Positions 1-30,195 of a stretch of DNA of 64,000 nt are shown piece after piece (position 1 is the stretch's first letter; every line of letters starts with the position of its first letter). The DNA is taken from the NCBI GenBank assembly GCA_023634235.1, contig JAMKCF010000140.1, positions 1 through 64,000 of the forward strand. Reading direction: 5' to 3'. Position numbers and translations under genes: made by a program. The notes beneath the pieces are model-generated. The model saw nothing but the letters and a program-made list of their open reading frames with translations, searched no databases and had not been told where the DNA came from. Source of the stretch: Pisaster brevispinus (taxonomy: Eukaryota > Echinodermata > Asteroidea > Forcipulatida > Asteriidae).

Positions 1-127
1 TTGTCTTTGCCTTCTCCTTTTTACCACAGATGAGACGCCTCTAATCTGCCTCATTCACTAATTAATTACTTTTCTTTCCCTCTTCCCATCATTTATTTTA
101 TACTTTTTGAGGCTTTGCATGATGAGG

Positions 128-912
128 TATCAATGTATATTCAGTTTGCAATAACACCGTATGTATATCTACTAGCTATGTAGATTTGCTCTAATGAACT
201 AGGTCTTGCTTTTTAATTTTTTTTTATTCTACTGCCGCAGAGTAGATTTGGAAATCGGGAGACTACTTCGGGAGACTACTTAGTTCTGAAAAGAACTGTC
301 CAGCTTATTAGCTACTACCTGGGCGGTGGGTAGGAAATCGGCCGGGGCTACTACTTTGGCTTCATAGTGGATAGGATCGAGGGGACTTCTCGTTATTAAC
401 TTCATTGCCTCGGAGTGAGTTCTTAGTTGGTCTCAACATTTAGACTAGCTTGCTCTAGTCATCATCTCCGTACAATGACTAGAGCAAGCTAGTCGGTTTC
501 GACTAGCTTGCTCCAGTCATCATCTCCTAACGATGAGATGATGACTAGAGCAAGCTATGCTCTAGACATCGTCTGCTGACAATGACTAGAGCAAGCTAGT
601 CTAAATGTTGAGACCAATTAAGAACTCACTCCGCGGCAATGAAGTTAATACTGAGAAGTCCCCTCGATCCTATCCACTATTAAGCTAAAGTAGTAGTCCC
701 GGCCGATTTCCTACCCTCCACCCAGGTAGTAGCTAATAAGCTGGACAGTTCTTTTCAGAACTAAGTAGTCTCCCGAAGTAGTCTCCCGATTTCCAAATCT
801 ACTCTGCGGCAGTAAAATAAAAATAAAATAAAAAGCAAGACCTAGTTCTTTAAGAACAAATCTACATAGCTAGTAGATATACACACGGTGATTACTGCAA
901 ACCGAATATACA
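128..912. mobile_element. Foldback element, outer left copy
   Basis: A long imperfect inverted repeat of nearly 400 bp per arm. It begins near GTATATTCAGTTTGC and ends near GCAAACCGAATATAC. Each arm carries the ordered blocks TAGATTTG, AACTAGGTCTTGC, GAGACTACTT, GCTACTACCTGGG and AGTGAGTTCTTA. The middle (about 440-610) is built of short GACTAGCTTGCTCTAGTCAT subrepeats in both orientations. No coding capacity is visible. The structure fits a foldback or MITE-like family; I cannot name the family. Confidence 0.85.
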
Positions 913-2633
913 TCATTTATTTTGTCTTTTGTAATCGTTCCTCTTGTGGTCAAACCAGCCCCTCCCCCACCCCCACCCCCTTTTGTTACCCTCCTTTTTG
1001 TTCATCCTCCTGCTTTCTCTGTGTGCTTTCATTTGTAACGTCTATCTCCACTCCACTTTTTATGTTTGTAGTCTTGTCATTTAGCCTTCAAGAAAGACTC
1101 TGCTAGGGTCGAAACGTCAGGCCACTATGTATTTTTGTGTGTGTAGTACTTTTTCCATGATTTTTTGAGCCAATTTGTAGTAATTTTTTTGCTGAGAATG
1201 TTTTATTCATGCATATTTGTATTTAGAAGAACTGATTTAATGTCTGGTCATATTGTTACTTTCAGTGCATATAATTATATACAGTGTATTTTCCTTAAGT
1301 GTGAGGGACTGTTTATGTATAATTTTCTTGTGTATGAATCTCACAAGTTAGTCAAATTGTGAGTTTGAGGTGCATATATAGCTTGGCCTTGACTCTCTGG
1401 CTGGTAGGAGAGAGGCACACTGCAGGCGTTTTGCTAATGAACTTGCTAATAACCCTCACACTAGAGACCTTCCCCCTACCAGGCATGAGAGTCATGGTCG
1501 AAACCTCCGAAATAGTCATCATGTTTCAACCATCCCCACCAGATCCAGTCGTTTTAAAAATTAATTATTAATTATTTCTCCATTTTATTGTGTGTGGTGG
1601 TCTGAGTGAGGTTCTTATTTAATTTTATGTTTTATTGAAACATTTATGTCCCTGTTAATTATTCCATTTCCCTTTTAAACTACAGTGAGGTGTTTCTTTT
1701 GTTTATGTGCTTCTGTTTTTGTTTTAAAGGCGAGTGTGCAATCTGTTTTTCTTATCTATTTTTTTGCTATTTAGGTGTCCTTAAAAAAAAAAGTATGTCT
1801 TATCGATTTTTTACTATTGTAATGACTCTGTAATTTGACTTTCAAGTCACAAAGTTTGTCAATTTTAATACATCTTATAATCTTATTCATATATAAATGT
1901 CATTTTCATAAATCCTTTCTAGGTCGCATTGTTTGTTTTTATGGACCACTCGGGTCGCGTGGTCGTAAAGTAGGGAACCCAAGTGCATCCTCAATGTTCA
2001 ATTGTCTCCTCCAACTTGGTTGTTAGAATATTTATAGTGAAAAGTTAAGTTTGAAGTCTCGACCTTTAGGCTCATTCTCTTTTTCATTTTAGCTTTAAGC
2101 AAGAGAGATCAAGAGCACATTTATTTTCTCTTGTTATTTTTCTTTATTTTGTACAAAGCATGACTCTGGCCATACTCCAAATGCATTTCAGTAGGGAGGG
2201 ATAGGGTCATAGAGCTATTTGTGAGTATCTGTATCAAAATCATAACTTTATTCCAGAAATAATTTTTAAATAGAAGGCCGGCCTCCTTCCCTTGTCTCTA
2301 CATTAACTGTTAATTAAGTGAGGAGGGTCCTCATAAATTCCCTCATCTCTGCCAATTGCTTTGTTTTGCTTTATTAATTGACTTTATATTTATTATATTG
2401 TATTTTGTTATGTTCCCTTTGGGGGAGAATTACAAGATGAGCGAGTACCTGCATTTCTGTTTCCATTTTGGAGTAATTTGTTTGTCTCCGAGTTTAGCGG
2501 GTAGTCCGCTCCCCTTCTGGCAGATAGGGATGAGCTCTTACAATATGTTGAGCCACTTTTTATAGCTCTTACATCCTTTTAAAGATTCTTTTGCAAAAAA
2601 GTATAGTCCCTGCATAAATAGGCAAAGAGTAAA
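913..2633. other. Arm segment without recognised gene
   Basis: AT-rich sequence with scattered short open frames and no splice-supported exon that I can recognise. The piece at 940-1130 (C-rich run, then GGTCGAAACGTCAGGCC) is shared with the palindrome spacer and is part of the repeat flank. The mirror is 26777-28497, in which I also see no gene. Confidence 0.5.
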
Positions 2634-3310
2634 AATGGCATCTGAAAAACTGTGGTTAATTAACCACTAATAAGTGAGCCAAATTAGCCAGCTTCTATTC
2701 ATAATGAAGAGTACAAATTCTATTCAGAAAAGTAGTTGACTCAAAAGCACAGGCATTATAAATAGAAATGGTGTCTGTATATAGTTGTGGCTATTTTTGA
2801 GCTGCCTTATTTGTTTCACTAATTAGTGGTTAAATACAGTTTTACAGATGCCATTTTCCATCTAGAGCAGGTAAAATGCACATGCAGTTGAGTAAACTAC
2901 CTTAAAAAAAATTGTATCCTTCATTATCAGTAAAAAAAAAATTAGCCCAGGATCTTGAAGACTGTTATAGCCTGGGCACACCACTTTTTGAAGTAGCTAA
3001 ATTGGTCCAGTAATTAGTGAATTAATTGGCTGTTAATTAACCACATCTATGCAGATGTCATTTGCGTCTCACGTACATTTGCCTTATGCGGTTGAGTAAT
3101 AACTACCTCTAAGAATGTACTCTTCGTTATTAGTAAAAGTGTAAGTTTAAGCCCAGAATCTTGAAAACTGTCAAACTGAACGTACCAAATTTTTGAGTTG
3201 GCAAATTTGGTCCATTGATTAGTGGTTAGTATCACAGTTATATACGCCATTTTCCATCCATAACACGCACAATTACATAACGCTGTTGAGTACACTACTT
3301 TTCTTTTCGA
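2634..3310. repeat. ~207-bp tandem repeat with inverted lead copy
   Basis: Units start near 2798, 3008 and 3216. Each runs from an AATTAGTG motif through a GCCATTTTCC or related block and a GTTGAGTA block to AAATTGGTCC. An additional copy at about 2634-2775 is in the opposite orientation, so the cluster can fold on itself. The units are moderately diverged. The mirror is 26100-26776. Confidence 0.7.
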
Positions 3311-3876
3311 TATTTGATATTTTATTGAAAAACAAACACAATTGAATGCGTTCATACAAACATATTTAAAAGGTACTACAAGTGGTTAAAAGAAAAATAT
3401 TAATTGTTGGGGAAAAATATTGGTGTTAATATAAAATTTATTAGGCCTATTATTATTCCAACGAAAAACTACAAAAAGGAAAACAACTTTTTGATTAGTT
3501 CAGAAGTCCCCATCATTGCAATAGTGAGAAAGAAACCCGCTCTGAGACTATCATTGCAAGAGTAGTTCAATTTCAACACTTCCAATTTAATTTGTTAATT
3601 TAATTAACGTTAAGGTTGTCGATTACAAATTTAAGATTGACAACATATTTTCATCTGCATAAAAACTAGTAATATTAGTTCTTGAATGACGAAAGTGGTT
3701 TAATTTTTCAATGTGTAAACGTATGCAGTTTTCAGATTACGATAACATGCATACTATTTTACTTTTACTTATTTAATCTTAATTACTGAATTCAGAAAAG
3801 TTGCAAGATCAAGGATGACTAGTTTCTCAATGTTTGAAGTACACCCCCCCCCTCACTTCATTTGTGCTTACTTGGA

Positions 3877-3909
3877 TGACGTTGCTGACGTCGCATTCTA
3901 ATGACGTAA
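3877..3909 (+). promoter_or_regulatory. Cluster of CRE/ATF-like sites
   Basis: Three TGACGT cores lie at 3877-3882, 3886-3892 (TGACGTC) and 3902-3909 (TGACGTAA). A fourth related TCGTCAT follows. They sit 112-145 bp upstream of the ATG of the signal-peptide exon at 4021, which suits a proximal promoter bound by CREB/ATF-type bZIP factors. No TATA box is evident. The sites are seen in the sequence; promoter function is inferred. Confidence 0.5.
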
Positions 3910-4020
3910 TTTTTACTCGTCATGTAGCTTATTTTATTGTACAGCGCCCTCACAGCCAAAAACTAGCGTTTGGAATTTTCGCGGGGTTTCTCCAGCATTA
4001 TTTTGCTTTACGAAGACAAG

Positions 4021-4130
4021 ATGACACTTCGGGTTTCTGGCTACGTTTTTGCTGTTGTTGTTCTTCTTCATTTTGAATGCAGCCTTCGAATGATTGAAGA
4101 TGTAGGCACTGCATGTGTGCGAATGTTCAG
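4021..4130 (+). CDS. Candidate first exon with signal peptide
   Basis: The ATG opens 36 codons plus two bases and runs to a clean donor (TTCAG|GTAAATATC). The start MTLRVSG is followed by a hydrophobic core (YVFAVVVLLHF) and then Glu-Cys-Ser, typical of a secretory signal peptide. The CRE-like cluster lies just upstream. The next exons on this strand that I can recognise are the CUB exons at 11641-13526, so this may be the 5' exon of that secreted or membrane CUB protein. The link is inference: 7.5 kb of tandem repeats and a minisatellite lie between, and phases were not traced. Coding status would need transcript evidence. Confidence 0.45.
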
Positions 4131-4454
4131 GTAAATATCACTTTATTCTACTCTTGTTCTACGGTTTATCATGTCGTTTGTGCAGTTAGGTTTGTTTCTC
4201 TACGATCATTACAACTTTTGGGAGAAAACAAACACTAAACAGTGACGGCAGCAACGTTTGTCAGTGAAGACAGTGGCGAGAATGCTAATATTAGTCAAGT
4301 CGGGAGCACTCATTCTGGTTTAGTCTGGTTTGGAAATTATGTCTGCAGCACATAATAATACTTTATTCATCTTTATCATCATCTATGAATTCCAGTTGTC
4401 AGAGACATTTTGTGAACTAAATCAACAGTTAAGTTTTCGGTAGGTTTCTTCTGA

Positions 4455-7400
4455 TCTCTGACTCTGCTCTGGTCAGTCCCTCCTGCTACCAAATTGTCCA
4501 CTTGCCGCTTGTGTGCATATACCATTCTACATTGACTTGCCACAGTCATGAAGAAAAGTTATACTTACAAAATCTGTGTCTGCAGTTTCTTCCCAGAACT
4601 TAATTATTTCCAAGCGTTTTATATGTCTTCTTTGGAATTGTCTTTGTCCAATAGGCACAGCTATTTCTTCATGAGTTTGTGCTGTCTGTGTCGGCTCTTC
4701 ATCCCACGGCTCATGAAAAGGTACGATTAAGTATTATTAAAGGTATAATACAGGATTGGTAGATCTGGTAGAAGAGAGAGTTTGTGACCTTAATCAACAG
4801 TTCAGTTTTCAGGAGGTTTCTTCTTCCCCATATCTTTTTCTGACGGTAGTCATCTTGAAAAGCCCTTTGGAATTCGCCTTTTGTTCCAGGGCTTGAATTT
4901 GTTGGGGAAATCCACAAGAATGCAGGTCTTGCATGTTGCTTTAAATATGCAGTAGACAAGAATTTCTGTTACAAGACCAGAATCAAAGAGAAAAATCCAT
5001 TATCTACACAGTTGAACATGTAAACTGTTTTTATCTGAACAAGCACTAACACAAGAGTGATTTCATTTGTCTGCAGTTTCTTCCCAGAACTTAATTATTT
5101 CCAAACTTTTCATAGGTGTTCTTTTGAATTGTCTTTGTCCAGTAGGCACAGCTTTTTCTTCATGAGTTTGTGCTGTCTGTGTCGCCTCTTCATCCCACGG
5201 CTCATGAAAAGGTACAAATTTTATAAGACCTTTGGACTGGTCTGGTCATTAGTTTACTGGCCAGACTCTAAAATTACTGGCCTCGAGTCTGCGTTTCAAC
5301 TCGAAATGATGGCCTTTGCAACTGCAGGGTTTTGATGTTGCTTACCACTCATCAGAATTTAGTGTGTGAGAGCTGAATTTAATTTCCGAATAGACACTTT
5401 CATCTGTGTCTAGCTGTTTGTTGGAGGTGAATTCGCCTCGCAATCCAGCTAATATACATTGTCAAAGAACTGTTTTTTGCCATCCTTAGAGCAGCCAACT
5501 CTTCCTGTTTCTGCGGATAGTTCCCTGAAAATAAATCCATCTTTCCATGTTCAGATAAACAAATTTGAAAATCTCCCCAATTATTTTAGGTTTTCCGCCA
5601 TGTTCTTCATATCGCCCAGATTATTGTAGAAAATTTCCTTGACTGCAAGATGAAAATTTTGGCAGCTTGACCTAGAGTGGATGTTCGCGTATAAGATCTT
5701 CTCTTGAAATCGTACACTTCCGAACTTAATTCTTGAGGCATGTTAAACCCTATCAATATTTGAAGTTTATTGATTATTTCCTTAATGAATCAAGTCTTAT
5801 ATTAGTGGGATCTTGTTTGAACTCTTGATTGCACCTGAGAAAGTTCAGGCTTTTTGAGTTTTTTGACATTCACTTATAGTTTGGAGACTTTCAGATCATA
5901 ACATATGCAGGCGACGCAGGCTAATGGAACTACATTTAAAGTGTCCTTTTGTGTTGTTATGATAACAAGCCCAGTCTGTTCTGTGAGGTCTGCATCACTG
6001 GACCGCTAGGCCACAACACTCCACTAATTATTGTAGAACAGAACAAGGGATGAATGCATAGTCAGATTATGGGTCAGGCTCATTCCAGATTGGATTTCGA
6101 GCAGAGGAGGCAAACTTATAATTTCAAAATCCGTTGGAGTTAAGTGACCAAGTGTAATAAAAACTTGAATTGGTAAGACGTCGTCACTGATCTCTGGTCA
6201 GTCCCTCCTGCTACCAATTGTCCACTTGCCACTTGGGTGTGCATATACCATTCTATCTTGACTTGCCACAGTCCTAAACAAAAAAGTTACATTTACAAAA
6301 TCTGTGTCTGCAGTTTCTTCCCAGAACTTAATTATTTCCAAACTTTTCATATGTGTTCTTTTGAATTGTCTTTGTCCAGTAGGCACAGCTATTTCTTCAT
6401 GGGTTTGTGCTGTCTGTGTCGGCTCTTCATCCCACGGCTCATGAAAAGGTACGATTGAGTATTATTAAAGGTATAATACAGGATTGGTAGATCTGGTAGA
6501 AGAGAGAGTTTGTGAACTAAATCAACAGTTCAGTTTTCAGGAGGTTTCTTCTTCCTCATATTTTTTTCTGACGGTAGTCAGCTTGAAAAGCCCTATGGAA
6601 TTTGCCCCTCGTTCCAGGGCTTGAATTTGATGGGGAAATCCACAAGAATGCAGGGCTTGCATGTTGCTTAAAATATGCACTAGACAAGAATTTCTGTTAC
6701 AAGACCAGAAATAAAGAGAGAAATCCATTATCTACTCAGTTTAACATGTAAACTTTTTTTATCTGAACAAGCACTGACACAAGAGTGATTTCATTTGTCT
6801 GCAGTTTCTTCCCAGAACTTGATTATTTCCAAACTTTTTATATGTGTTCTTTTGAATTGTCTTTGTCCAGTAGGCACAGCTATTTCTTCATGAGTTTGTG
6901 CTGTCTGTGTCGCCTCTTCATCCCTTGGCTCATGAAAAGGTACAAATTTTATAAGACCTTTGGACTGGTCTGGTCATTAGTTTACTGGCCAGACTCTAAA
7001 ATTACTGGCCTCGAGTCTGCGTTTCAACTCGAAATGATGACCTTTGCAACTGCAGGGTTTTGATGTTGCTTACCACTCATCAGAATTTAGTGTGTGAGAG
7101 CTGAATTTAATTTCCGAATAGACACTTTCATCTGTGTCTAGTTGTTTGTTGGAGGTGAATTCGCCTCGCAATCCAGCTAATATACATTGTCAAAGAACTG
7201 TTTTTTGCCATCCTTAAAGCAGCCAACTCTTCCTGTTTCTGCGGATAGTTCCCTGAAAATAAATCCATCTTTCCATGTTCAGATAAACAAATTTGAAAAT
7301 CTCCCCAATTATTTTAGGTTTTCCGCCATGTTCTTCATATCGCCCAGATTATTGTAGAAAATTTCCTTGACTGCAAGATGAAAATTTTGGCAGCTTGACC

Positions 7401-9210
7401 TAGAGTGGATGTTCGCGTATAAGATCTTCTCTTGAAATCGTACACTTCCGAACTTAATTCTTGAGGCATGTTAAACCCTATCAATATTTGAAGTTTATTG
7501 ATTATTTCCTTAATGAATCAAGTCTTATATTAGTGGGATCTTGTTTGAACTTTTGATTGCACCTGAGAAAGTTCAGGCTTTTTGAGTTTTTTGACATTCA
7601 CTTATAGTTTGGAGACTTTCAGATCATAACATATGCAGGCGACGCAGGCTAATGGAACTACATTTAAAGTGTCCTTTTGTGTTGTTATGATAACAAGCCC
7701 AGTCTGTTCTGTGAGGTCTGCATCACTGGACCGCTAGGCCACAACACTCCACTAATTATTGTAGAACAGAACAAGGGATGAATGCATAGTCAGATTATGG
7801 GTCAGGCTCATTCCAGATTGGATTTCGAGCAGAGGAGGCAAACTTATAATTTCAAAATCCGTTGGAGTTAAGTGACCAAGTGTAATAAAAACTTGAATTG
7901 GTAAGACGTCGTCACTGATCTCTGGTCAGTCCCTCCTGCTACCAATTGTCCACTTGCCACTTGGGTGTGCATATACCATTCTATCTTGACTTGCCACAGT
8001 CCTAAACAAAAAAGTTACATTTACAAAATCTGTGTCTGCAGTTTCTTCCCAGAACTTAATTATTTCCAAACTTTTCATATGTGTTCTTTTGAATTGTCTT
8101 TGTCCAGTAGGCACAGCTATTTCTTCATGGGTTTGTGCTGTCTGTGTCGGCTCTTCATCCCACGGCTCATGAAAAGGTACGATTGAGTATTATTAAAGGT
8201 ATAATACAGGATTGGTAGATCTGGTAGAAGAGAGAGTTTGTGAACTAAATCAACAGTTCAGTTTTCAGGAGGTTTCTTCTTCCTCATATTTTTTTCTGAC
8301 GGTAGTCAGCTTGAAAAGCCCTATGGAATTTGCCCCTCGTTCCAGGGTTTGAATTTGATGGGGAAATCCACAAGAATGCAGGGCTTGCATGTTGCTTAAA
8401 ATATGCACTAGACAAGAATTTCTGTTACAAGACCAGAAATAAAGAGAGAAATCCATTATCTACTCAGTTTAACATGTAAACTTTTTTTATCTGAACAAGC
8501 ACTGACACAAGAGTGATTTCATTTGTCTGCAGTTTCTTCCCAGAACTTGATTATTTCCAAACTTTTTATATGTGTTCTTTTGAATTGTCTTTGTCCAGTA
8601 GGCACAGCTATTTCTTCATGAGTTTGTGCTGTCTGTGTCGCCTCTTCATCCCACGGCTCATGAAAAGGTACAAATTTTATAAGACCTTTGGACTGGTCTG
8701 GTCATTAGTTTACTGGCCAGACTCTAAAATTACTGGCCTCGAGTCTGCGTTTCAACTCGAAATGATGGCCTTTGCAACTGCAGGGTTTTGATGTTGCTTG
8801 CCAATTGTTAGAATTTAGTGTGTGAGAGCTGAATTTAATTTCCGAATAGAAACTTTCATCTATGTCTAGCTGTTTGTTGGAGGTGAATTTGCCCCGTAAT
8901 CCAGCTCACATAGATTGTCAAAGAAGTGTTTTTTGCCATCCTTAGAGCAGCCAACTCTCCCTGTTTCTGCGGATAGTTTCCTGAAAATAAATCCATCTTT
9001 CCAGGTTCAGATAAACAAATTTGAAAATCTCCCCAATTATTTTAGGTTTTCCGCCATGTTCTTCATATACCCCAGATTATTGTAGAAAATTTCCTTGACT
9101 GCAAGATGAAAGTGTTGGCAGCTTGACCTTTTAGAGTGGTTGTTCGCGTATAAGATCTTCTCTTAAAATCGTACACTTCCGAACTAAATTCTTGGCGCTT
9201 GTTAAACCCT
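4455..9210. repeat. Three tandem 1,728-bp units (left arm)
   Basis: Corresponding points recur at 1,728-bp spacing, for example 5057, 6785 and 8513, and 6198 and 7926. Copy 1 is more diverged, copies 2 and 3 are nearly identical, and copy 3 decays toward its end. Each unit contains two related modules. On the minus strand these read as coding-like peptides, e.g. EEIAVPTGQRQ then KSLEIIKFWEET, and a third stretch MQALHSCGFPHQ ... TTVRKKYEEEET keeps its frame between copies. I recognise no protein family and found no complete set of splice sites. It could be a tandemly amplified piece of a gene or of a transposon. Confidence 0.75.
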
Positions 9211-9263
9211 ATCAATATTTTCAGCATGTTATTACCTTATCCTTTATTTTGGTTGTACCAACC

Positions 9264-9375
9264 ATTTTCAGATTGGAGTGTGGAGTTCGGAGGTTGGAGT
9301 TTGGGGTTTGGAGTTTGGAGTTTGGAAATTGGAGATTTGAGGTTGGTGTTTGGAGATTGGGGCATCTGGTTGTTA
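9264..9375. repeat. Short GGAGTTT minisatellite
   Basis: Degenerate 7-8-bp units of the type GGAGTTTG directly precede the 12-bp array. The mirror is 20035-20146. Confidence 0.7.
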
Positions 9376-9381
9376 GCTTCC

Positions 9382-11634
9382 AGTTGTAGTCTCAGTTGTA
9401 GTCGCAGTTGAAGTCTCAGTTGTAGTCTCAGTTGTAGTCTCAGTTGTAGCCCCAGTTGTAGCCCCAGTTGTAGCCCCAGTTGTAGCCCCAGTTGTAGCCC
9501 CAGTTGTAGCCCCAGTTGTAGCCCCAGTTGTAGCCCCAGTTGTAGCCCCAGTTGTAGCCCCAGTTGTAGCCCCAGTTGTAGCCCCAGTTGTAGCCCCAGT
9601 TGTAGCCCCAGTTGTAGCCCCAGTTGTAGCCCCAGTTGTAGCCCCAGTTGTAGCCCCAGTTGTAGCCCCAGTTGTAGCCCCAGTTGTAGCCCCAGTTGTA
9701 GCCCCAGTTGTAGCCCCAGTTGTAGCCCCAGTTGTAGCCCCAGTTGTAGCCCCAGTTGTAGCCCCAGTTGTAGCCCCAGTTGTAGCCCCAGTTGTAGCCC
9801 CAGTTGTAGCCCCAGTTGTAGCCCCAGTTGTAGCCCCAGTTGTAGCCCCAGTTGTAGCCCCAGTTGTAGCCCCAGTTGTAGCCCCAGTTGTAGCCCCAGT
9901 TGTAGCCCCAGTTGTAGCCCCAGTTGTAGCCCCAGTTGTAGCCCCAGTTGTAGCCCCAGTTGTAGCCCCAGTTGTAGCCCCAGTTGTAGCCCCAGTTGTA
10001 GCCCCAGTTGTAGCCCCAGTTGTAGTCTCAGTTGTAGTCTCAGTTGTAGTCTCAGTTGTAGTCTCAGTTGTAGTCTCAGTTGTAGTCTCAGTTGTAGTCT
10101 CAGTTGTAGTCTCAGTTGTAGTCTCAGTTGTAGTCTCAGTTGTAGTCTCAGTTGTAGTCTCAGTTGTAGTCTCAGTTGTAGTCTCAGATGTAGTCTCAGA
10201 TGTAGTCTCAGATGTAGTCTCAGTTGTAGTCTCAGTTGTAGTCTCAGTTGTAGTCTCAGTTGTAGTCTCAGTTGTAGTCTCAGTTGTAGTCTCAGTTGTA
10301 GTCTCAGTTGTAGTCTCAGTTGTAGTCTCAGTTGTAGTCTCAGTTGTAGTCTCAGTTGTAGTCTCAGTTGTAGTCTCAGTTGTAGTCTCAGTTGTAGTCT
10401 CAGTTGTAGTCTCAGTTGTAGTCTCAGTTGTAGTCTCAGTTGTAGTCTCAGTTGTAGTCTCAGTTGTAGTCTCAGTTGTAGTCTCAGTTGTAGTCTCAGT
10501 TGTAGTCTCAGTTGTAGTCTCAGTTGTAGTCTCAGTTGTAGTCTCAGTTGTAGTCTCAGTTGTAGTCTCAGTTGTAGTCTCAGTTGTAGTCTCAGTTGTA
10601 GTCTCAGTTGTAGTCTCAGTTGTAGTCTCAGTTGTAGTCTCAGTTGTAGTCTCAGTTGTAGTCTCAGTTGTAGTCTCAGTTGTAGTCTCAGTTGTAGTCT
10701 CAGTTGTAGTCTCAGTTGTAGTCTCAGTTGTAGTCTCAGTTGTAGTCTCAGTTGTAGTCTCAGTTGTAGTCTCAGTTGTAGTCTCAGTTGTAGTCTCAGT
10801 TGTAGTCTCAGTTGTAGTCTCAGTTGTAGTCTCAGTTGTAGTCTCAGTTGTAGTCTCAGTTGTAGTCTCAGTTGTAGTCTCAGTTGTAGTCTCAGTTGTA
10901 GTCTCAGTTGTAGTCTCAGTTGTAGTCTCAGTTGTAGTCTCAGTTGTAGTCTCAGTTGTAGTCTCAGTTGTAGTCTCAGTTGTAGTCTCAGTTGTAGTCT
11001 CAGTTGTAGTCTCAGTTGTAGTCTCAGTTGTAGTCTCAGTTGTAGTCTCAGTTGTAGTCTCAGTTGTAGTCTCAGTTGTAGTCTCAGTTGTAGTCTCAGT
11101 TGTAGTCTCAGTTGTAGTCTCAGTTGTAGTCTCAGTTGTAGTCTCAGTTGTAGTCTCAGTTGTAGTCTCAGTTGTAGTCTCAGTTGTAGTCTCAGTTGTA
11201 GTCTCAGTTGTAGTCTCAGTTGTAGTCTCAGTTGTAGTCTCAGTTGTAGTCTCAGTTGTAGTCTCAGTTGTAGTCTCAGTTGTAGTCTCAGTTGTAGTCT
11301 CAGTTGTAGTCTCAGTTGTAGTCTCAGTTGTAGTCTCAGTTGTAGTCTCAGTTGTAGTCTCAGTTGTAGTCTCAGTTGTAGTCTCAGTTGTAGTCTCAGT
11401 TGTAGTCTCAGTTGTAGTCTCAGTTGTAGTCTCAGTTGTAGTCTCAGTTGTAGTCTCAGTTGTAGTCTCAGTTGTAGTCTCAGTTGTAGTCTCAGTTGTA
11501 GTCTCAGTTGTAGTCTCAGTTGTAGTCTCAGTTGTAGTCTCAGTTGTAGTCTCAGTTGTAGTCTCAGTTGTAGTCTCAGTTGTAGTCTCAGTTGTAGTCT
11601 CAGTTGTAGTCTCAGTTGTAGTCTCAGTTGTAGT
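9382..11634. repeat. 12-bp minisatellite, two unit types
   Basis: About 188 units of AGTTGTAGTCTC or AGTTGTAGCCCC. Units of the CCCC type form one block (about 9442-10020), with CTC-type units on both sides. Three consecutive units near 10188-10212 carry A for T. On the minus strand the array is an uninterrupted frame of Thr-Thr-Thr-Glu and Thr-Thr-Gly-Ala repeats (9373-11649). A 12-bp unit stays open automatically in two of three frames per strand, so the open frame alone is weak evidence. The array ends at GTTTCTAG, the likely acceptor of the CUB exon at 11641, so on the plus strand it lies in an intron. Block B lacks it. Confidence 0.9.
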
Positions 11635-11640
11635 TTCTAG

Positions 11641-11784
11641 TTCAACCAAAAGCCTGCCTACACTACCTCTCCTCCAAGCAGACTGCGGCTGTCAGATCCT
11701 CTATACTCCTCCACCAGATTTTGCGCTTCTTGACATTCATGGGCCTGTGATACCCGATGCTGACTGAGAGCGACATTATTTGAG
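11641..11784 (+). pseudogene. CUB-like exon with in-frame stop
   Basis: An acceptor (TTTCTAG) precedes the frame and a GAG|GTACTT donor closes it. The frame reads ...ADCGCQILYTPPPDFALLDI..., which resembles the N-terminal half of a CUB domain: a Cys, an aromatic or aliphatic strand, then PPxxxxLL. At 11765-11767 the frame has TGA. Block B (32193-32330, minus) has TGC at the same codon, so a cysteine seems to have become a stop. B has its own lesion, so neither copy is intact. CUB domains are extracellular binding modules of about 110 residues. Family assignment is moderate. Confidence 0.5.
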
Positions 11785-12160
11785 GTACTTTTCATCAAGT
11801 TACTGTTAATGTCACTTCTTATATATTTGAATGTACAGCTTTTTGATATTTTGCACAGAGCGGAGCATTCTCTGAGGCATGGGTCAGTAGACTTACCAGG
11901 TCATTCAATGTCTTAAAGATGTGTGCATGCTCAGTACTGTCAACAGTAGAAGATATCACAGTATGTTTGCTGCCACCTAGAGTTCCAATGATGTAAACTG
12001 GAAATAAATCTTCTGTTAATAATTCTATTGGTTTTTGGAAGAGTACTTTCATTCCCTCTTGATGGTATCTGACATCCACAAAATGTCAACCAACATTTTC
12101 TAGAAAAGTGCTAATAACAAGTTAATGTCTGCTAATCTTTCCCGCTTATGTAAATTTCAG
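11785..12160 (+). other. Intron with CTCF-like motif
   Basis: An intron between the two CUB-like exons. On the minus strand it holds CTCTAGGTGGCAGC (about 11972-11985), close to the CTCF core. The same motif recurs at 17425-17438, about 31987 and 44826. No exon was seen on the other strand. The mirror is 17250-17625. Confidence 0.3.
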
Positions 12161-12346
12161 AGTGCAGCAAGGTCCTGACCGCTGACTGAGGAGCCTTCCA
12201 GTCTGTCAACTTCCTGTTAAACAATCAACCAGATGCCGAGTGTCAGACGCTGATACACTCCCAACCAGACATCAGGGTTCAGACTGTTTTCAGCGAGTTG
12301 GAGTTGGAGAAACATGGTAGGAAGCTTCACAACTGACTACCTCAAG
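12161..12346 (+). pseudogene. CUB domain, 5' exon, disabled
   Basis: The acceptor AATTTCAG is followed by a frame with CUB N-terminal landmarks: SKVLTAD, GAFQSVNF, PDAECQTLIHSQPD, RVQTVFSELELE. It ends in DYLK before a GTCAGA donor. An in-frame TGA lies at 12187-12189. A one-base gain near 12314-12322, relative to block B, breaks the frame before the DYLK end, and the Cys that B keeps there is Phe. It pairs in phase with the exon at 12696-12867 to make one CUB module. The lesions indicate a pseudogene, or an exon skipped in transcripts. Confidence 0.65.
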
Positions 12347-17769: not shown

Positions 17770-17775
17770 CTAGAA

Positions 17776-20028: not shown

Positions 20029-20199
20029 GGAAGCTAACAACCAGATGCCCCAATCTCCAAACACCAACCTCAAATCTCCAATTTCCAAACTCCAAACTCC
20101 AAACCCCAAACTCCAACCTCCGAACTCCACACTCCAATCTGAAAATGGTTGGTACAACCAAAATAAAGGATAAGGTAATAACATGCTGAAAATATTGAT

Positions 20200-23100
20200 A
20201 GGGTTTAACAAGCGCCAAGAATTTAGTTCGGAAGTGTACGATTTTAAGAGAAGATCTTATACGCGAACAACCACTCTAAAAGGTCAAGCTGCCAACACTT
20301 TCATCTTGCAGTCAAGGAAATTTTCTACAATAATCTGGGGTATATGAAGAACATGGCGGAAAACCTAAAATAATTGGGGAGATTTTCAAATTTGTTTATC
20401 TGAACCTGGAAAGATGGATTTATTTTCAGGAAACTATCCGCAGAAACAGGGAGAGTTGGCTGCTCTAAGGATGGCAAAAAACACTTCTTTGACAATCTAT
20501 GTGAGCTGGATTACGGGGCAAATTCACCTCCAACAAACAGCTAGACATAGATGAAAGTTTCTATTCGGAAATTAAATTCAGCTCTCACACACTAAATTCT
20601 AACAATTGGCAAGCAACATCAAAACCCTGCAGTTGCAAAGGCCATCATTTCGAGTTGAAACGCAGACTCGAGGCCAGTAATTTTAGAGTCTGGCCAGTAA
20701 ACTAATGACCAGACCAGTCCAAAGGTCTTATAAAATTTGTACCTTTTCATGAGCCGTGGGATGAAGAGGCGACACAGACAGCACAAACTCATGAAGAAAT
20801 AGCTGTGCCTACTGGACAAAGACAATTCAAAAGAACACATATAAAAAGTTTGGAAATAATCAAGTTCTGGGAAGAAACTGCAGACAAATGAAATCACTCT
20901 TGTGTCAGTGCTTGTTCAGATAAAAAAAGTTTACATGTTAAACTGAGTAGATAATGGATTTCTCTCTTTATTTCTGGTCTTGTAACAGAAATTCTTGTCT
21001 AGTGCATATTTTAAGCAACATGCAAGCCCTGCATTCTTGTGGATTTCCCCATCAAATTCAAACCCTGGAACGAGGGGCAAATTCCATAGGGCTTTTCAAG
21101 CTGACTACCGTCAGAAAAAAATATGAGGAAGAAGAAACCTCCTGAAAACTGAACTGTTGATTTAGTTCACAAACTCTCTCTTCTACCAGATCTACCAATC
21201 CTGTATTATACCTTTAATAATACTCAATCGTACCTTTTCATGAGCCGTGGGATGAAGAGCCGACACAGACAGCACAAACCCATGAAGAAATAGCTGTGCC
21301 TACTGGACAAAGACAATTCAAAAGAACACATATGAAAAGTTTGGAAATAATTAAGTTCTGGGAAGAAACTGCAGACACAGATTTTGTAAATGTAACTTTT
21401 TTGTTTAGGACTGTGGCAAGTCAAGATAGAATGGTATATGCACACCCAAGTGGCAAGTGGACAATTGGTAGCAGGAGGGACTGACCAGAGATCAGTGACG
21501 ACGTCTTACCAATTCAAGTTTTTATTACACTTGGTCACTTAACTCCAACGGATTTTGAAATTATAAGTTTGCCTCCTCTGCTCGAAATCCAATCTGGAAT
21601 GAGCCTGACCCATAATCTGACTATGCATTCATCCCTTGTTCTGTTCTACAATAATTAGTGGAGTGTTGTGGCCTAGCGGTCCAGTGATGCAGACCTCACA
21701 GAACAGACTGGGCTTGTTATCATAACAACACAAAAGGACACTTTAAATGTAGTTCCATTAGCCTGCGTCGCCTGCATATGTTATGATCTGAAAGTCTCCA
21801 AACTATAAGTGAATGTCAAAAAACTCAAAAAGCCTGAACTTTCTCAGGTGCAATCAAAAGTTCAAACAAGATCCCACTAATATAAGACTTGATTCATTAA
21901 GGAAATAATCAATAAACTTCAAATATTGATAGGGTTTAACATGCCTCAAGAATTAAGTTCGGAAGTGTACGATTTCAAGAGAAGATCTTATACGCGAACA
22001 TCCACTCTAGGTCAAGCTGCCAAAATTTTCATCTTGCAGTCAAGGAAATTTTCTACAATAATCTGGGCGATATGAAGAACATGGCGGAAAACCTAAAATA
22101 ATTGGGGAGATTTTCAAATTTGTTTATCTGAACATGGAAAGATGGATTTATTTTCAGGGAACTATCCGCAGAAACAGGAAGAGTTGGCTGCTTTAAGGAT
22201 GGCAAAAAACAGTTCTTTGACAATGTATATTAGCTGGATTGCGAGGCGAATTCACCTCCAACAAACAACTAGACACAGATGAAAGTGTCTATTCGGAAAT
22301 TAAATTCAGCTCTCACACACTAAATTCTGATGAGTGGTAAGCAACATCAAAACCCTGCAGTTGCAAAGGTCATCATTTCGAGTTGAAACGCAGACTCGAG
22401 GCCAGTAATTTTAGAGTCTGGCCAGTAAACTAATGACCAGACCAGTCCAAAGGTCTTATAAAATTTGTACCTTTTCATGAGCCAAGGGATGAAGAGGCGA
22501 CACAGACAGCACAAACTCATGAAGAAATAGCTGTGCCTACTGGACAAAGACAATTCAAAAGAACACATATAAAAAGTTTGGAAATAATCAAGTTCTGGGA
22601 AGAAACTGCAGACAAATGAAATCACTCTTGTGTCAGTGCTTGTTCAGATAAAAAAAGTTTACATGTTAAACTGAGTAGATAATGGATTTCTCTCTTTATT
22701 TCTGGTCTTGTAACAGAAATTCTTGTCTAGTGCATATTTTAAGCAACATGCAAGCCCTGCATTCTTGTGGATTTCCCCATCAAATTCAAGCCCTGGAACG
22801 AGGGGCAAATTCCATAGGGCTTTTCAAGCTGACTACCGTCAGAAAAAAATATGAGGAAGAAGAAACCTCCTGAAAACTGAACTGTTGATTTAGTTCACAA
22901 ACTCTCTCTTCTACCAGATCTACCAATCCTGTATTATACCTTTAATAATACTCAATCGTACCTTTTCATGAGCCGTGGGATGAAGAGCCGACACAGACAG
23001 CACAAACCCATGAAGAAATAGCTGTGCCTACTGGACAAAGACAATTCAAAAGAACACATATGAAAAGTTTGGAAATAATTAAGTTCTGGGAAGAAACTGC

Positions 23101-24955
23101 AGACACAGATTTTGTAAATGTAACTTTTTTGTTTAGGACTGTGGCAAGTCAAGATAGAATGGTATATGCACACCCAAGTGGCAAGTGGACAATTGGTAGC
23201 AGGAGGGACTGACCAGAGATCAGTGACGACGTCTTACCAATTCAAGTTTTTATTACACTTGGTCACTTAACTCCAACGGATTTTGAAATTATAAGTTTGC
23301 CTCCTCTGCTCGAAATCCAATCTGGAATGAGCCTGACCCATAATCTGACTATGCATTCATCCCTTGTTCTGTTCTACAATAATTAGTGGAGTGTTGTGGC
23401 CTAGCGGTCCAGTGATGCAGACCTCACAGAACAGACTGGGCTTGTTATCATAACAACACAAAAGGACACTTTAAATGTAGTTCCATTAGCCTGCGTCGCC
23501 TGCATATGTTATGATCTGAAAGTCTCCAAACTATAAGTGAATGTCAAAAAACTCAAAAAGCCTGAACTTTCTCAGGTGCAATCAAGAGTTCAAACAAGAT
23601 CCCACTAATATAAGACTTGATTCATTAAGGAAATAATCAATAAACTTCAAATATTGATAGGGTTTAACATGCCTCAAGAATTAAGTTCGGAAGTGTACGA
23701 TTTCAAGAGAAGATCTTATACGCGAACATCCACTCTAGGTCAAGCTGCCAAAATTTTCATCTTGCAGTCAAGGAAATTTTCTACAATAATCTGGGCGATA
23801 TGAAGAACATGGCGGAAAACCTAAAATAATTGGGGAGATTTTCAAATTTGTTTATCTGAACATGGAAAGATGGATTTATTTTCAGGGAACTATCCGCAGA
23901 AACAGGAAGAGTTGGCTGCTCTAAGGATGGCAAAAAACAGTTCTTTGACAATGTATATTAGCTGGATTGCGAGGCGAATTCACCTCCAACAAACAGCTAG
24001 ACACAGATGAAAGTGTCTATTCGGAAATTAAATTCAGCTCTCACACACTAAATTCTGATGAGTGGTAAGCAACATCAAAACCCTGCAGTTGCAAAGGCCA
24101 TCATTTCGAGTTGAAACGCAGACTCGAGGCCAGTAATTTTAGAGTCTGGCCAGTAAACTAATGACCAGACCAGTCCAAAGGTCTTATAAAATTTGTACCT
24201 TTTCATGAGCCGTGGGATGAAGAGGCGACACAGACAGCACAAACTCATGAAGAAAAAGCTGTGCCTACTGGACAAAGACAATTCAAAAGAACACCTATGA
24301 AAAGTTTGGAAATAATTAAGTTCTGGGAAGAAACTGCAGACAAATGAAATCACTCTTGTGTTAGTGCTTGTTCAGATAAAAACAGTTTACATGTTCAACT
24401 GTGTAGATAATGGATTTTTCTCTTTGATTCTGGTCTTGTAACAGAAATTCTTGTCTACTGCATATTTAAAGCAACATGCAAGACCTGCATTCTTGTGGAT
24501 TTCCCCAACAAATTCAAGCCCTGGAACAAAAGGCGAATTCCAAAGGGCTTTTCAAGATGACTACCGTCAGAAAAAGATATGGGGAAGAAGAAACCTCCTG
24601 AAAACTGAACTGTTGATTAAGGTCACAAACTCTCTCTTCTACCAGATCTACCAATCCTGTATTATACCTTTAATAATACTTAATCGTACCTTTTCATGAG
24701 CCGTGGGATGAAGAGCCGACACAGACAGCACAAACTCATGAAGAAATAGCTGTGCCTATTGGACAAAGACAATTCCAAAGAAGACATATAAAACGCTTGG
24801 AAATAATTAAGTTCTGGGAAGAAACTGCAGACACAGATTTTGTAAGTATAACTTTTCTTCATGACTGTGGCAAGTCAATGTAGAATGGTATATGCACACA
24901 AGCGGCAAGTGGACAATTTGGTAGCAGGAGGGACTGACCAGAGCAGAGTCAGAGA
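20200..24955. repeat. Three tandem 1,728-bp units (right arm)
   Basis: Mirror of 4455-9210. Here the coding-like modules read on the plus strand, for example the 62-codon frame at 21296-21484 and its copy at 23024-23212. One-to-few-residue differences between copies preserve the frame (Asp to Ala, His to Gln, Arg to Gln). This hints at past selection, but the evidence is weak. Confidence 0.75.
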
Positions 24956-25279
24956 TCAGAAGAAACCTACCGAAAACTTAACTGTTGATTTAGTTCACAA
25001 AATGTCTCTGACAACTGGAATTCATAGATGATGATAAAGATGAATAAAGTATTATTATGTGCTGCAGACATAATTTCCAAACCAGACTAAACCAGAATGA
25101 GTGCTCCCGACTTGACTAATATTAGCATTCTCGCCACTGTCTTCACTGACAAACGTTGCTGCCGTCACTGTTTAGTGTTTGTTTTCTCCCAAAAGTTGTA
25201 ATGATCGTAGAGAAACAAACCTAACTGCACAAACGACATGATAAACCGTAGAACAAGAGTAGAATAAAGTGATATTTAC

Positions 25280-25389
25280 CTGAACATTCGCACACATGCA
25301 GTGCCTACATCTTCAATCATTCGAAGGCTGCATTCAAAATGAAGAAGAACAACAACAGCAAAAACGTAGCCAGAAACCCGAAGTGTCAT
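25280..25389 (-). CDS. Candidate signal-peptide exon, right arm
   Basis: Identical mirror of the exon at 4021-4130, with the same donor. If the palindrome is real, there are two divergent copies of this promoter and first exon. Confidence 0.45.
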
Positions 25390-25500
25390 CTTGTCTTCGT
25401 AAAGCAAAATAATGCTGGAGAAACCCCGCGAAAATTCCAAACGCTAGTTTTTGGCTGTGAGGGCGCTGTACAATAAAATAAGCTACATGACGAGTAAAAA

Positions 25501-25533
25501 TTACGTCATTAGAATGCGACGTCAGCAACGTCA
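25501..25533 (-). promoter_or_regulatory. CRE/ATF-like cluster, right arm
   Basis: Mirror of 3877-3909, upstream of the mirrored signal-peptide exon at 25280-25389. Confidence 0.5.
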
Positions 25534-26099
25534 TCCAAGTAAGCACAAATGAAGTGAGGGGGGGGGTGTACTTCAAACATTGAGAAACTAGTCATCCTTG
25601 ATCTTGCAACTTTTCTGAATTCAGTAATTAAGATTAAATAAGTAAAAGTAAAATAGTATGCATGTTATCGTAATCTGAAAACTGCATACGTTTACACATT
25701 GAAAAATTAAACCACTTTCGTCATTCAAGAACTAATATTACTAGTTTTTATGCAGATGAAAATATGTTGTCAATCTTAAATTTGTAATCGACAACCTTAA
25801 CGTTAATTAAATTAACAAATTAAATTGGAAGTGTTGAAATTGAACTACTCTTGCAATGATAGTCTCAGAGCGGGTTTCTTTCTCACTATTGCAATGATGG
25901 GGACTTCTGAACTAATCAAAAAGTTGTTTTCCTTTTTGTAGTTTTTCGTTGGAATAATAATAGGCCTAATAAATTTTATATTAACACCAATATTTTTCCC
26001 CAACAATTAATATTTTTCTTTTAACCACTTGTAGTACCTTTTAAATATGTTTGTATGAACGCATTCAATTGTGTTTGTTTTTCAATAAAATATCAAATA

Positions 26100-26776
26100 T
26101 CGAAAAGAAAAGTAGTGTACTCAACAGCGTTATGTAATTGTGCGTGTTATGGATGGAAAATGGCGTATATAACTGTGATACTAACCACTAATCAATGGAC
26201 CAAATTTGCCAACTCAAAAATTTGGTACGTTCAGTTTGACAGTTTTCAAGATTCTGGGCTTAAACTTACACTTTTACTAATAACGAAGAGTACATTCTTA
26301 GAGGTAGTTATTACTCAACCGCATAAGGCAAATGTACGTGAGACGCAAATGACATCTGCATAGATGTGGTTAATTAACAGCCAATTAATTCACTAATTAC
26401 TGGACCAATTTAGCTACTTCAAAAAGTGGTGTGCCCAGGCTATAACAGTCTTCAAGATCCTGGGCTAATTTTTTTTTTACTGATAATGAAGGATACAATT
26501 TTTTTTAAGGTAGTTTACTCAACTGCATGTGCATTTTACCTGCTCTAGATGGAAAATGGCATCTGTAAAACTGTATTTAACCACTAATTAGTGAAACAAA
26601 TAAGGCAGCTCAAAAATAGCCACAACTATATACAGACACCATTTCTATTTATAATGCCTGTGCTTTTGAGTCAACTACTTTTCTGAATAGAATTTGTACT
26701 CTTCATTATGAATAGAAGCTGGCTAATTTGGCTCACTTATTAGTGGTTAATTAACCACAGTTTTTCAGATGCCATT
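26100..26776. repeat. ~207-bp repeat cluster, right arm
   Basis: Mirror copy of the cluster at 2634-3310, with the same number and order of units in reverse. Confidence 0.7.
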
Positions 26777-28497
26777 TTTACTCTTTGCCTATTTATGCAG
26801 GGACTATACTTTTTTGCAAAAGAATCTTTAAAAGGATGTAAGAGCTATAAAAAGTGGCTCAACATATTGTAAGAGCTCATCCCTATCTGCCAGAAGGGGA
26901 GCGGACTACCCGCTAAACTCGGAGACAAACAAATTACTCCAAAATGGAAACAGAAATGCAGGTACTCGCTCATCTTGTAATTCTCCCCCAAAGGGAACAT
27001 AACAAAATACAATATAATAAATATAAAGTCAATTAATAAAGCAAAACAAAGCAATTGGCAGAGATGAGGGAATTTATGAGGACCCTCCTCACTTAATTAA
27101 CAGTTAATGTAGAGACAAGGGAAGGAGGCCGGCCTTCTATTTAAAAATTATTTCTGGAATAAAGTTATGATTTTGATACAGATACTCACAAATAGCTCTA
27201 TGACCCTATCCCTCCCTACTGAAATGCATTTGGAGTATGGCCAGAGTCATGCTTTGTACAAAATAAAGAAAAATAACAAGAGAAAATAAATGTGCTCTTG
27301 ATCTCTCTTGCTTAAAGCTAAAATGAAAAAGAGAATGAGCCTAAAGGTCGAGACTTCAAACTTAACTTTTCACTATAAATATTCTAACAACCAAGTTGGA
27401 GGAGACAATTGAACATTGAGGATGCACTTGGGTTCCCTACTTTACGACCACGCGACCCGAGTGGTCCATAAAAACAAACAATGCGACCTAGAAAGGATTT
27501 ATGAAAATGACATTTATATATGAATAAGATTATAAGATGTATTAAAATTGACAAACTTTGTGACTTGAAAGTCAAATTACAGAGTCATTACAATAGTAAA
27601 AAATCGATAAGACATACTTTTTTTTTTAAGGACACCTAAATAGCAAAAAAATAGATAAGAAAAACAGATTGCACACTCGCCTTTAAAACAAAAACAGAAG
27701 CACATAAACAAAAGAAACACCTCACTGTAGTTTAAAAGGGAAATGGAATAATTAACAGGGACATAAATGTTTCAATAAAACATAAAATTAAATAAGAACC
27801 TCACTCAGACCACCACACACAATAAAATGGAGAAATAATTAATAATTAATTTTTAAAACGACTGGATCTGGTGGGGATGGTTGAAACATGATGACTATTT
27901 CGGAGGTTTCGACCATGACTCTCATGCCTGGTAGGGGGAAGGTCTCTAGTGTGAGGGTTATTAGCAAGTTCATTAGCAAAACGCCTGCAGTGTGCCTCTC
28001 TCCTACCAGCCAGAGAGTCAAGGCCAAGCTATATATGCACCTCAAACTCACAATTTGACTAACTTGTGAGATTCATACACAAGAAAATTATACATAAACA
28101 GTCCCTCACACTTAAGGAAAATACACTGTATATAATTATATGCACTGAAAGTAACAATATGACCAGACATTAAATCAGTTCTTCTAAATACAAATATGCA
28201 TGAATAAAACATTCTCAGCAAAAAAATTACTACAAATTGGCTCAAAAAATCATGGAAAAAGTACTACACACACAAAAATACATAGTGGCCTGACGTTTCG
28301 ACCCTAGCAGAGTCTTTCTTGAAGGCTAAATGACAAGACTACAAACATAAAAAGTGGAGTGGAGATAGACGTTACAAATGAAAGCACACAGAGAAAGCAG
28401 GAGGATGAACAAAAAGGAGGGTAACAAAAGGGGGTGGGGGTGGGGGAGGGGCTGGTTTGACCACAAGAGGAACGATTACAAAAGACAAAATAAATGA

Positions 28498-29282
28498 TGT
28501 ATATTCGGTTTGCAGTAATCACCGTGTGTATATCTACTAGCTATGTAGATTTGTTCTTAAAGAACTAGGTCTTGCTTTTTATTTTATTTTTATTTTACTG
28601 CCGCAGAGTAGATTTGGAAATCGGGAGACTACTTCGGGAGACTACTTAGTTCTGAAAAGAACTGTCCAGCTTATTAGCTACTACCTGGGTGGAGGGTAGG
28701 AAATCGGCCGGGACTACTACTTTAGCTTAATAGTGGATAGGATCGAGGGGACTTCTCAGTATTAACTTCATTGCCGCGGAGTGAGTTCTTAATTGGTCTC
28801 AACATTTAGACTAGCTTGCTCTAGTCATTGTCAGCAGACGATGTCTAGAGCATAGCTTGCTCTAGTCATCATCTCATCGTTAGGAGATGATGACTGGAGC
28901 AAGCTAGTCGAAACCGACTAGCTTGCTCTAGTCATTGTACGGAGATGATGACTAGAGCAAGCTAGTCTAAATGTTGAGACCAACTAAGAACTCACTCCGA
29001 GGCAATGAAGTTAATAACGAGAAGTCCCCTCGATCCTATCCACTATGAAGCCAAAGTAGTAGCCCCGGCCGATTTCCTACCCACCGCCCAGGTAGTAGCT
29101 AATAAGCTGGACAGTTCTTTTCAGAACTAAGTAGTCTCCCGAAGTAGTCTCCCGATTTCCAAATCTACTCTGCGGCAGTAGAATAAAAAAAAATTAAAAA
29201 GCAAGACCTAGTTCATTAGAGCAAATCTACATAGCTAGTAGATATACATACGGTGTTATTGCAAACTGAATATACATTGATA
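28498..29282. mobile_element. Foldback element, outer right copy
   Basis: Mirror of the element at 128-912 with the same inverted-repeat blocks. It marks the transition from the palindrome arm to block B, which starts about 120 bp beyond it. Confidence 0.85.
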
Positions 29283-30195
29283 CCTCATCATGCAAAGCCT
29301 CAAAAAGTATAAAATAAATGATGGGAAGAGGGAAAGAAAAGTAATTAATTAGTGAATGAGGCAGATTAGAGGCGTCTCATCTGTGGTAAAAAGGAGAAGG
29401 CAAAGACAAAAGGTTATTAGACATTTCCTTCTTAGATGTTTAGACCATGGGGTTGAATGGTCTGGAGACGCCTTATCCATAGCTTCTCCCTACTCAGACC
29501 AACAATCTTGTGGTTTCGTCAAAGCCCTGTAAAATCATGAGAGAAATGGAGTGATTAGAAAGATAAAGTGACGTCCTACACAGCTGTATCCAGCTTTTGG
29601 ATGTTGACTGTGGATCTGGCTAGGATTTATTCTCTCTGTAAACACCTGTACAAACTGTTGAGAGTTGTGCAGGCGGTCAATAAAACACATACATGTACAA
29701 TTAATTATCTTATACAATGCAAGTATGTCAATAAAATGTCAATACAAATGAAGGCAACTCCTAAATATTCAGTCTCTACCAAATAATGATTATCTCAAAG
29801 AAAGCAAATGCATGAGTGCGTGATCGGAGAACATAGAATATATAGCATGACACTGGATGGGCAAGAAGGCATAAGTTACCTAACACACAGGGCCCACTAA
29901 TCATCATCATTCACACAACAAACTCACAAACCTATGCCTCCAAGTCGAATCCCACCAGCCAAACCGCAGTCAACACACCCATGCATTCCATTTAAAGTAT
30001 TACACATAATTATTAATATTATTATTAATATTACAATATGAACCTGGTCGGAAGACAAGCAGCTAATAAACTATATAAAAAATAAAGACATGTAGGCTGA
30101 CCACTACCTGTACTAGTAGTAATTTTGTACTGATAGCCATAATTCAGTTCATACATAGAAAAAGCCGCCGTCCAACCACTCTGATGTCCAACACT

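What the first reader, a model, noticed from the sequence alone, without database searches (positions are those of the whole stretch)
1..29409. 29-kb palindrome with indistinguishable arms
Two 14.28-kb arms in inverted orientation match at every point I compared, including an unstable 12-bp array of some 188 units. Either it arose very recently, or the arms are kept alike by gene conversion (as in ampliconic palindromes of sex chromosomes), or a read or assembly was folded back. The palindrome reaches the window edge, so its full size is unknown.
Basis: partly seen in the sequence, partly recalled or inferred. Interest (0 to 1): 0.85.

Follow-up and report, generated by a model that had tools for sequence, protein, structure and literature searches.

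The report
Perfect fold-back at a contig end
The 29-kb mirror-image sequence is really in the assembly, but it sits at the loose end of a contig inside a huge repeat array and is more likely a sequencing or assembly fold-back at a hairpin-forming element than a chromosomal palindrome.

Summary
In detail: window 1-14280 and 15130-29409 are inverted copies, 14,280 of 14,280 bases identical, around an 849-bp spacer. The context changes its meaning. Window base 1 is the last base of a 7,047,016-bp contig (C24), so the left arm is anchored to nothing. The region lies in an array of ~79-99-kb units that carry CTR9- and DDX54-like exon stretches and are separated by an element "O", a strong hairpin former. 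An ordinary unit reads X-O-A; here A lies on both sides. The start of contig C25, in the same kind of array, is also a perfect fold-back at an O, with X arms of 2,637 bp reaching exactly base 1. The next unit in C24 differs by 0.76% substitutions and by 120 versus 188 copies of the 12-bp repeat, so the arms look like one sequence read twice. C140, identical to the C24 end over the 120 kb compared, is probably redundant, not independent support. Best explanation: a fold-back at O made in the library or by the assembler (0.63). A real, very recent fold-back duplication is the main rival and cannot be excluded without reads.

The parts
1..14280 (-). Left arm (reverse complement of A, the DNA that follows element O in the array unit); base 1 is the contig end
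   Evidence: 100% inverted match to 15130-29409; C24 ends at 7047016 = window base 1
14281..15129 (+). Spacer: element O carrying a 438-bp internal deletion compared with an ordinary array copy (about 1287 bp)
   Evidence: alignment to the ordinary copy 79 kb further into C24; 1-849 contiguous at 100% only in C24 and C140 among the listed places
14497..15119 (.). Self-complementary core of O (hairpin stem)
   Evidence: inverted self-match of spacer bases 217-839 at 92%; DNA fold -343.2 kcal/mol, z -41.6
15130..29409 (+). Right arm (A), continuous with the rest of the array unit
   Evidence: matches the start of the next unit
14280..14281 (.). Fold-back junction: reversed A joined to the left boundary of O, blunt (0 bp shared)
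   Evidence: comparison with native X-O and A-O boundaries
4467..9220 (.). Tandem repeat of about 1.73 kb in the left arm (mirrored at 20190-24943)
   Evidence: self-BLAST
9381..11634 (.). 12-bp array, 187.8 copies (mirrored at 17776-20029)
   Evidence: TRF
133..913 (.). Second, diverged O-like inverted-repeat element in the left arm (mirrored at 28497-29277)
   Evidence: self-inverted match 88.6% and 86-89% matches to the spacer
29410..64000 (+). Continuation of the array unit on the anchored side
   Evidence: parts match the next unit in C24 at 97-98% (29410-50047 in pieces); the rest of the window was not matched at that level within the 134 kb compared
41611..41889 (-). Exon-like stretch of a DDX54-type DEAD-box helicase in the array unit
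   Evidence: Helicase_C 1.4e-13; best PDB match DDX54 8e-17

Best explanation
Fold-back artefact. C24 ends in the middle of an unresolved array of ~79-99-kb units. One long read or corrected molecule at that end runs along A to element O, folds back there and runs along A again. The assembler kept it because nothing else extended the contig. O, whose single strand is predicted to form a hairpin with a stem of nearly 300 bp, would promote the fold. Shown: exact arms, contig-end position, the O element, a second terminal fold-back at O on C25, and divergence of the neighbouring unit. Inferred: that the fold arose in library preparation or assembly rather than in the organism, and that a single read carries it.
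For: Left arm ends exactly at the contig end. C25 also begins with a perfect palindrome at an O element, arms 2637 of 2637 identical and reaching exactly base 1. Of the 20 O copies listed on C24 and C25 (8 and 12), A was listed on both sides only at the terminal C24 copy; of the 18 internal copies 16 had A on one side and 2 had none listed (capped list; the matching test with X did not complete). The next unit differs by 89 of 11,687 aligned bases and by 120 versus 188 repeat copies. Junctions share 0 bp (C24) and 3 bp (C25). Fold-back reads are ~0.55-0.6% of ONT genomic reads, one example carries ~2 kb between segments, they can recur at one place (in recent R10.4 genomic data few places did, typically with two reads), and they can tangle assembly graphs (PMC12870357, sections 5 and 6 read, a conclusions passage seen). 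The C25 overhang of 2.6 kb is short if many reads crossed a real junction (inference). Redundant contigs are a habit of this assembly: C140 starts at the same base as the C24 end, and C171 and C184 carry the same probe at the same coordinate.
Against: No reads or coverage could be examined, and the sequencing technology is unknown; PMC12870357 found virtually no fold-back reads in PacBio HiFi. Ending at a contig edge does not discriminate, because a real palindrome with identical arms longer than the reads would also stop the assembler there. Two terminal fold-backs at the same element could mean a real biological hotspot. The array contains units in both orientations. Some units are closer than the neighbour: on a 1201-bp probe seven other places print as 100% after rounding, with 8-35 fewer bits than the arms. 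Terminal fold-backs were not shown to be common elsewhere: the last 8 kb of C28 are a direct repeat, not a fold-back; of 18 contig ends searched, places came back for 3 (C104 start, C61 end, C445 start), with only same-strand copies in their own contig for C104 and C61 and none listed in C445 (saturated list).
Confidence: 0.63

Rival explanations
1. Real, very recent fold-back (breakage-fusion or template-switch) duplication at O. A break or stalled fork at O's hairpin joined two sister ends or switched template, making A-O-A; identical arms longer than the reads then stopped the assembler.
For: O is a strong hairpin former. Fold-back inversions in yeast are mediated by ssDNA hairpins, with loops up to thousands of nt (PMC7467729, start of abstract and passages). 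Two O copies are affected. The spacer O has lost 438 bp between similar direct repeats, as polymerase slippage at hairpins would give (inference).
Against: Two independent perfect events would both have to fall at contig ends; the C25 arm stops after 2.6 kb; C140 probably gives no independent support; no such junction was seen inside a contig among the listed places (capped lists; the direct junction search did not complete).
Confidence: 0.23
2. Ordinary inversion of one existing unit lying between C24 and C25, which would give an A-O-A junction on one side and X-O-X on the other.
For: These two junction types are seen at the C24 end and the C25 start. Units of both orientations occur within C24 and C25. 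Some units are very close on a 1201-bp probe.
Against: The arms would then be two different units. Measured pairs differ by 0.15% (6 kb) and 0.76%, that is about 21 and 109 differences expected in 14,280 bp; bit scores of the nearest probe copies suggest about one event in 1.2 kb, or roughly 12 expected (inference); 0 are observed. The 12-bp array of the next unit has 120, not 188 copies. The junction pair is not simply reciprocal: O is cut at different points. That one end has A arms and the other X arms is forced by the orientation of each contig and is no extra coincidence.
Confidence: 0.06
3. Natural hairpin-capped DNA ends at O (closed ends, or somatic breaks sealed by O's hairpin), read through by the sequencer.
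For: C24 starts with telomere-like repeats and ends at a fold around a hairpin element; C25 starts at such a fold. Hairpin-capped DNA is proposed as an intermediate of inverted amplification (ODIRA; PMC10766183, title and passages).
Against: 18 of the 20 listed O copies on C24 and C25 lie inside contigs; the spacer includes 216 bp left of the stem, which a simple hairpin cap would not hold; the far end of C25 shows no telomere repeat; no read data.
Confidence: 0.04
4. Old palindrome with arms homogenised by gene conversion, as in ampliconic sex-chromosome palindromes.
For: Identical arms.
Against: No anchored outer boundary; A on both sides not listed at any of the 18 internal O copies on C24 and C25 (capped); the neighbouring unit is not homogenised. 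Sex linkage was not tested.
Confidence: 0.04

Closest known systems
Fold-back artefacts in long reads (Heinz, Meyerson and Li 2026, PMC12870357; sections 5 and 6 read)
   Same: Inverted copy of the same locus, with or without a spacer (one example ~2 kb), can recur at a site, said to tangle assembly graphs
   Different: Here seen in assembled contigs, not reads; both cases centre on one hairpin-forming element; that paper saw virtually none in PacBio HiFi
Whole-genome-amplification palindromes (Warris et al. 2018, PMC6218980; abstract and background read)
   Same: Artificial palindromes from polymerase continuing on an already made product
   Different: Whether this sample was amplified is unknown
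Hairpin-mediated fold-back inversions (yeast, PMC7467729, passages) and breakage-fusion-bridge junctions in tumours (recalled)
   Same: Inverted duplication with a spacer; hairpin hotspot
   Different: No reads, no copy-number step, no resolved outer end
Ampliconic palindromes of sex chromosomes (recalled)
   Same: Long inverted arms, near-identical
   Different: Here 100.000% with no anchored outer boundary, inside a tandem array; gene conversion not shown
Macro-dyad symmetries of Tribolium satellite arrays (PMC13081366, passages including the abstract)
   Same: Long arrays with orientation switches
   Different: Unit here is 79-99 kb with gene exons, not a satellite monomer; the 8 kb around the midpoint of each orientation switch in C24 and C25 showed no inverted self-match

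Membership tests
Long-read fold-back artefact | Second segment is the same locus on the opposite strand | tested here: met
   14,280 of 14,280 identical; the adjacent unit is 0.76% different
Long-read fold-back artefact | Unsupported by independent reads of different extent | not testable with these tools
   no reads held
Long-read fold-back artefact | In an assembly, an unanchored fold-back at a contig tip | tested here: met
   C24 end and C25 start
Long-read fold-back artefact | Same pattern at unrelated contig ends of this assembly | tested here: inconclusive
   18-end search saturated by repeats; 3 of 18 pieces returned places, none an inverted copy in its own contig; the last 8 kb of C28 are not a fold-back
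Ampliconic gene-conversion palindrome | Both arms anchored in different unique flanks | tested here: not met
   left arm ends at the contig end
Ampliconic gene-conversion palindrome | Arms more alike than age allows, with conversion tracts | not testable with these tools
   no second individual or species at hand
In vivo fold-back inversion / breakage-fusion-bridge | Inverted junction with spacer and little microhomology | tested here: met
   849 and 867 bp spacers; 0 and 3 bp shared
In vivo fold-back inversion / breakage-fusion-bridge | Copy-number gain of the arm | not testable with these tools
   no coverage data
Hairpin-capped natural DNA end | Closed end resistant to exonuclease; all end reads palindromic | not testable with these tools
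   needs DNA or reads

The most novel reading that the evidence does not exclude
The O element of this CTR9/DDX54 array is a natural fragile hairpin that keeps producing in vivo fold-back duplications or hairpin-capped ends, so that the array grows and flips orientation by repeated fold-back at O.
Probability: 0.13. Interest if true: 0.6.

Novelty: not a real feature. Interest (0 to 1): 0.24.

Why it matters
If the fold-back is an artefact, it is a clear case of how a hairpin element at an unresolved array end can give a perfect fake palindrome in a contiguous assembly, which could be misread as an ampliconic or sex-linked palindrome. If it is real, the array would be a natural site of hairpin-driven inverted duplication.

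Tried and rejected
Sex-chromosome-like palindrome: rejected as unsupported, because the outer boundary is a contig end and the internal O copies listed on C24 and C25 do not show A on both sides (capped lists). Simple inversion of an existing unit: rejected as the main explanation, because measured units differ; on recheck I raised it from 0.05 to 0.06 and lowered the artefact from 0.64 to 0.63, because one search shows some units nearly identical on a 1201-bp probe. Independent support from C140: set aside; it matches the C24 end in 120,000 of 120,000 bases compared from the same starting base, and its last 4 kb match with a net 1-bp offset (the positional comparison was off by one base and one search corrected it). 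Bases 120,001-166,905 of C140 were not compared. Orientation switches inside C24 (near 6.91 Mb) and C25 (824-925 kb): the 8 kb around each midpoint showed no inverted self-match, so they are not symmetric fold-backs; the C25 switch point itself was not found. Contig-end survey: 40 ends were fetched (300 bases each); 3 read only N; 18 were searched as one joined query, and the 40 scored places matched only 3 of the 18 pieces, so the survey is inconclusive. Species not identified: a transposase fragment (HARBI1-like, a label partly recalled) gave two unnamed matches. No tRNA from ARAGORN; Rfam gave one tRNA match. Searches for the exact junctions elsewhere and for the X side did not complete. 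A probe at 40500-42000 did not complete.

Full report
What is there. The window holds two inverted arms, 1-14280 and 15130-29409, identical over all 14,280 bases without a gap, around an 849-bp spacer. The 12-bp arrays in the arms have the same length and 187.8 copies each.

Where it is. The window is C24:6983017-7047016, minus strand, in a 549.7-Mb assembly of 512 contigs, and C24 is 7,047,016 bp long. Window base 1 is therefore the last base of the contig. The left arm is attached to nothing on its outer side, and the size of the palindrome is undefined. C24 starts with telomere-like repeats.

The array. The spacer element, called O here, is listed on C24 at 8 places (6.41-7.03 Mb) and on C25 at 12 places (0.003-1.01 Mb), 79-99 kb apart within runs of one orientation, with one orientation switch in each contig. 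More diverged copies lie on other contigs. Only the best 40 candidates are scored, so these are lower bounds. The unit carries exon-like stretches of CTR9 (best PDB match 3.3e-18) and of DDX54 (8e-17), plus retroelement and transposase fragments. In the ordinary unit next to it the order is X-O-A, O being about 1287 bp. In the window the order is reversed A - shortened O - A.

The element O. The spacer is an imperfect palindrome; 14497-15119 matches itself inverted at 92%. Folded as single-stranded DNA it reaches -343.2 kcal/mol, against a shuffle mean of -87.25 (z -41.6, 20 shuffles). Compared with the ordinary copy it has lost 438 bp between two similar direct repeats. Among the listed places the spacer is contiguous over 849 bases at 100% only in C24 and C140; four other contigs (C187, C104, C102, C61) have it contiguous at 92-94%, and in these X-like sequence lies on one side and A-like sequence on the other.

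A second case. C25 begins with another perfect palindrome: 1-2637 against 3505-6141, 2637 of 2637 identical, reaching exactly base 1, spacer 867 bp. It folds at the same element, but with X arms, the other side of O. The junctions share 0 bp (C24) and 3 bp (C25). Which side forms the arms follows from the orientation of each contig and is not an extra coincidence.

Inside the contigs. Of 18 O copies listed inside C24 (7) and C25 (11), A was listed on one side at 16 and on neither at 2, never on both (capped list). The mirror test, X on both sides, did not complete.

Age of the arms. The next unit in C24 differs from the right arm by 89 of 11,687 aligned bases and has 120 instead of 188 copies of the 12-bp repeat and one ~1.73-kb tandem copy fewer. 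Two units of opposite orientation in C24 agree at 99.85% over 6 kb. At these two divergences about 21 and 109 differences would be expected in 14,280 bp; there are none. Some units are closer still on a 1201-bp probe: seven other places print as 100% after rounding, with 8-35 fewer bits, from which I infer perhaps one event in 1.2 kb, still about 12 expected. The arms thus look like copies of one molecule or of one very recent event, not two established units.

Redundant contigs. C140 (170,905 bp) starts at the same base with the same spacer in the same orientation and agrees with the C24 end over the 120,000 bases compared; its last 4 kb also agree, with a net 1-bp offset; 46,905 bases between were not compared. 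I take it as a redundant contig. Other pairs behave alike: C171 and C184 carry one probe at the same coordinate, C102 and C104 repeat the same probe order and share an identical 3.8-kb stretch with each other and C187. C140 is therefore not counted as independent support.

Interpretation. An unanchored perfect fold-back at a contig tip, twice, at a hairpin-forming element, is what fold-back reads could leave. In ONT genomic libraries such reads are about 0.55-0.6% of reads, one example holds ~2 kb between segments, they can recur at the same places (few in recent R10.4 genomic data, typically with two reads), and they can tangle assembly graphs (PMC12870357, sections 5 and 6 read, conclusions passage seen). 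Amplified DNA gives artificial palindromes too (PMC6218980, abstract and background read). Against this, the same paper saw virtually no fold-backs in PacBio HiFi (PMC12870357), the platform here is unknown, and a real palindrome with arms longer than the reads would also end a contig. I put a library or assembly fold-back at 0.63 and a real recent fold-back duplication at 0.23.

What was not settled. A survey of other contig ends was inconclusive: 3 of 18 pieces returned places, with same-strand copies only in their own contig for C104 and C61 and none listed in C445. The last 8 kb of C28 are a direct 5.4-kb repeat at 99.96%, not a fold-back. Searches for the junctions inside other contigs did not complete by the machine. 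Reads and coverage are not held.

Noticed in passing
C24:6406153-7047016 and C25:1-1007561: Long arrays of ~79-99-kb units carrying CTR9- and DDX54-like exon stretches, with one orientation switch in each; related copies on C8, C28, C102, C104 and others.
   Followed up: partly
window 59504-63986: 188-bp satellite, about 24 copies at ~80% identity; related satellite lies near the midpoint of the orientation switch in C24 and, by eye, at several contig ends.
   Followed up: partly
window 37108-38144: 69-bp minisatellite, 15 copies, open in several frames.
   Followed up: no
C28:2966085-2974084 (L072): Contig end inside a 5.4-kb direct tandem repeat at 99.96% that contains an O-like element.
   Followed up: partly
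C140, C171/C184, C102/C104/C187: Redundant near-identical contigs or stretches, some starting at the same base or sharing probe coordinates.
   Followed up: partly
window 55437-57362: Retroelement fragments (reverse transcriptase, integrase zinc domain) next to a HARBI1-like transposase fragment at 56859-57362; no LTRs were sought.
   Followed up: no
window 47789-47861: tRNA match in Rfam on the minus strand that ARAGORN did not call.
   Followed up: no
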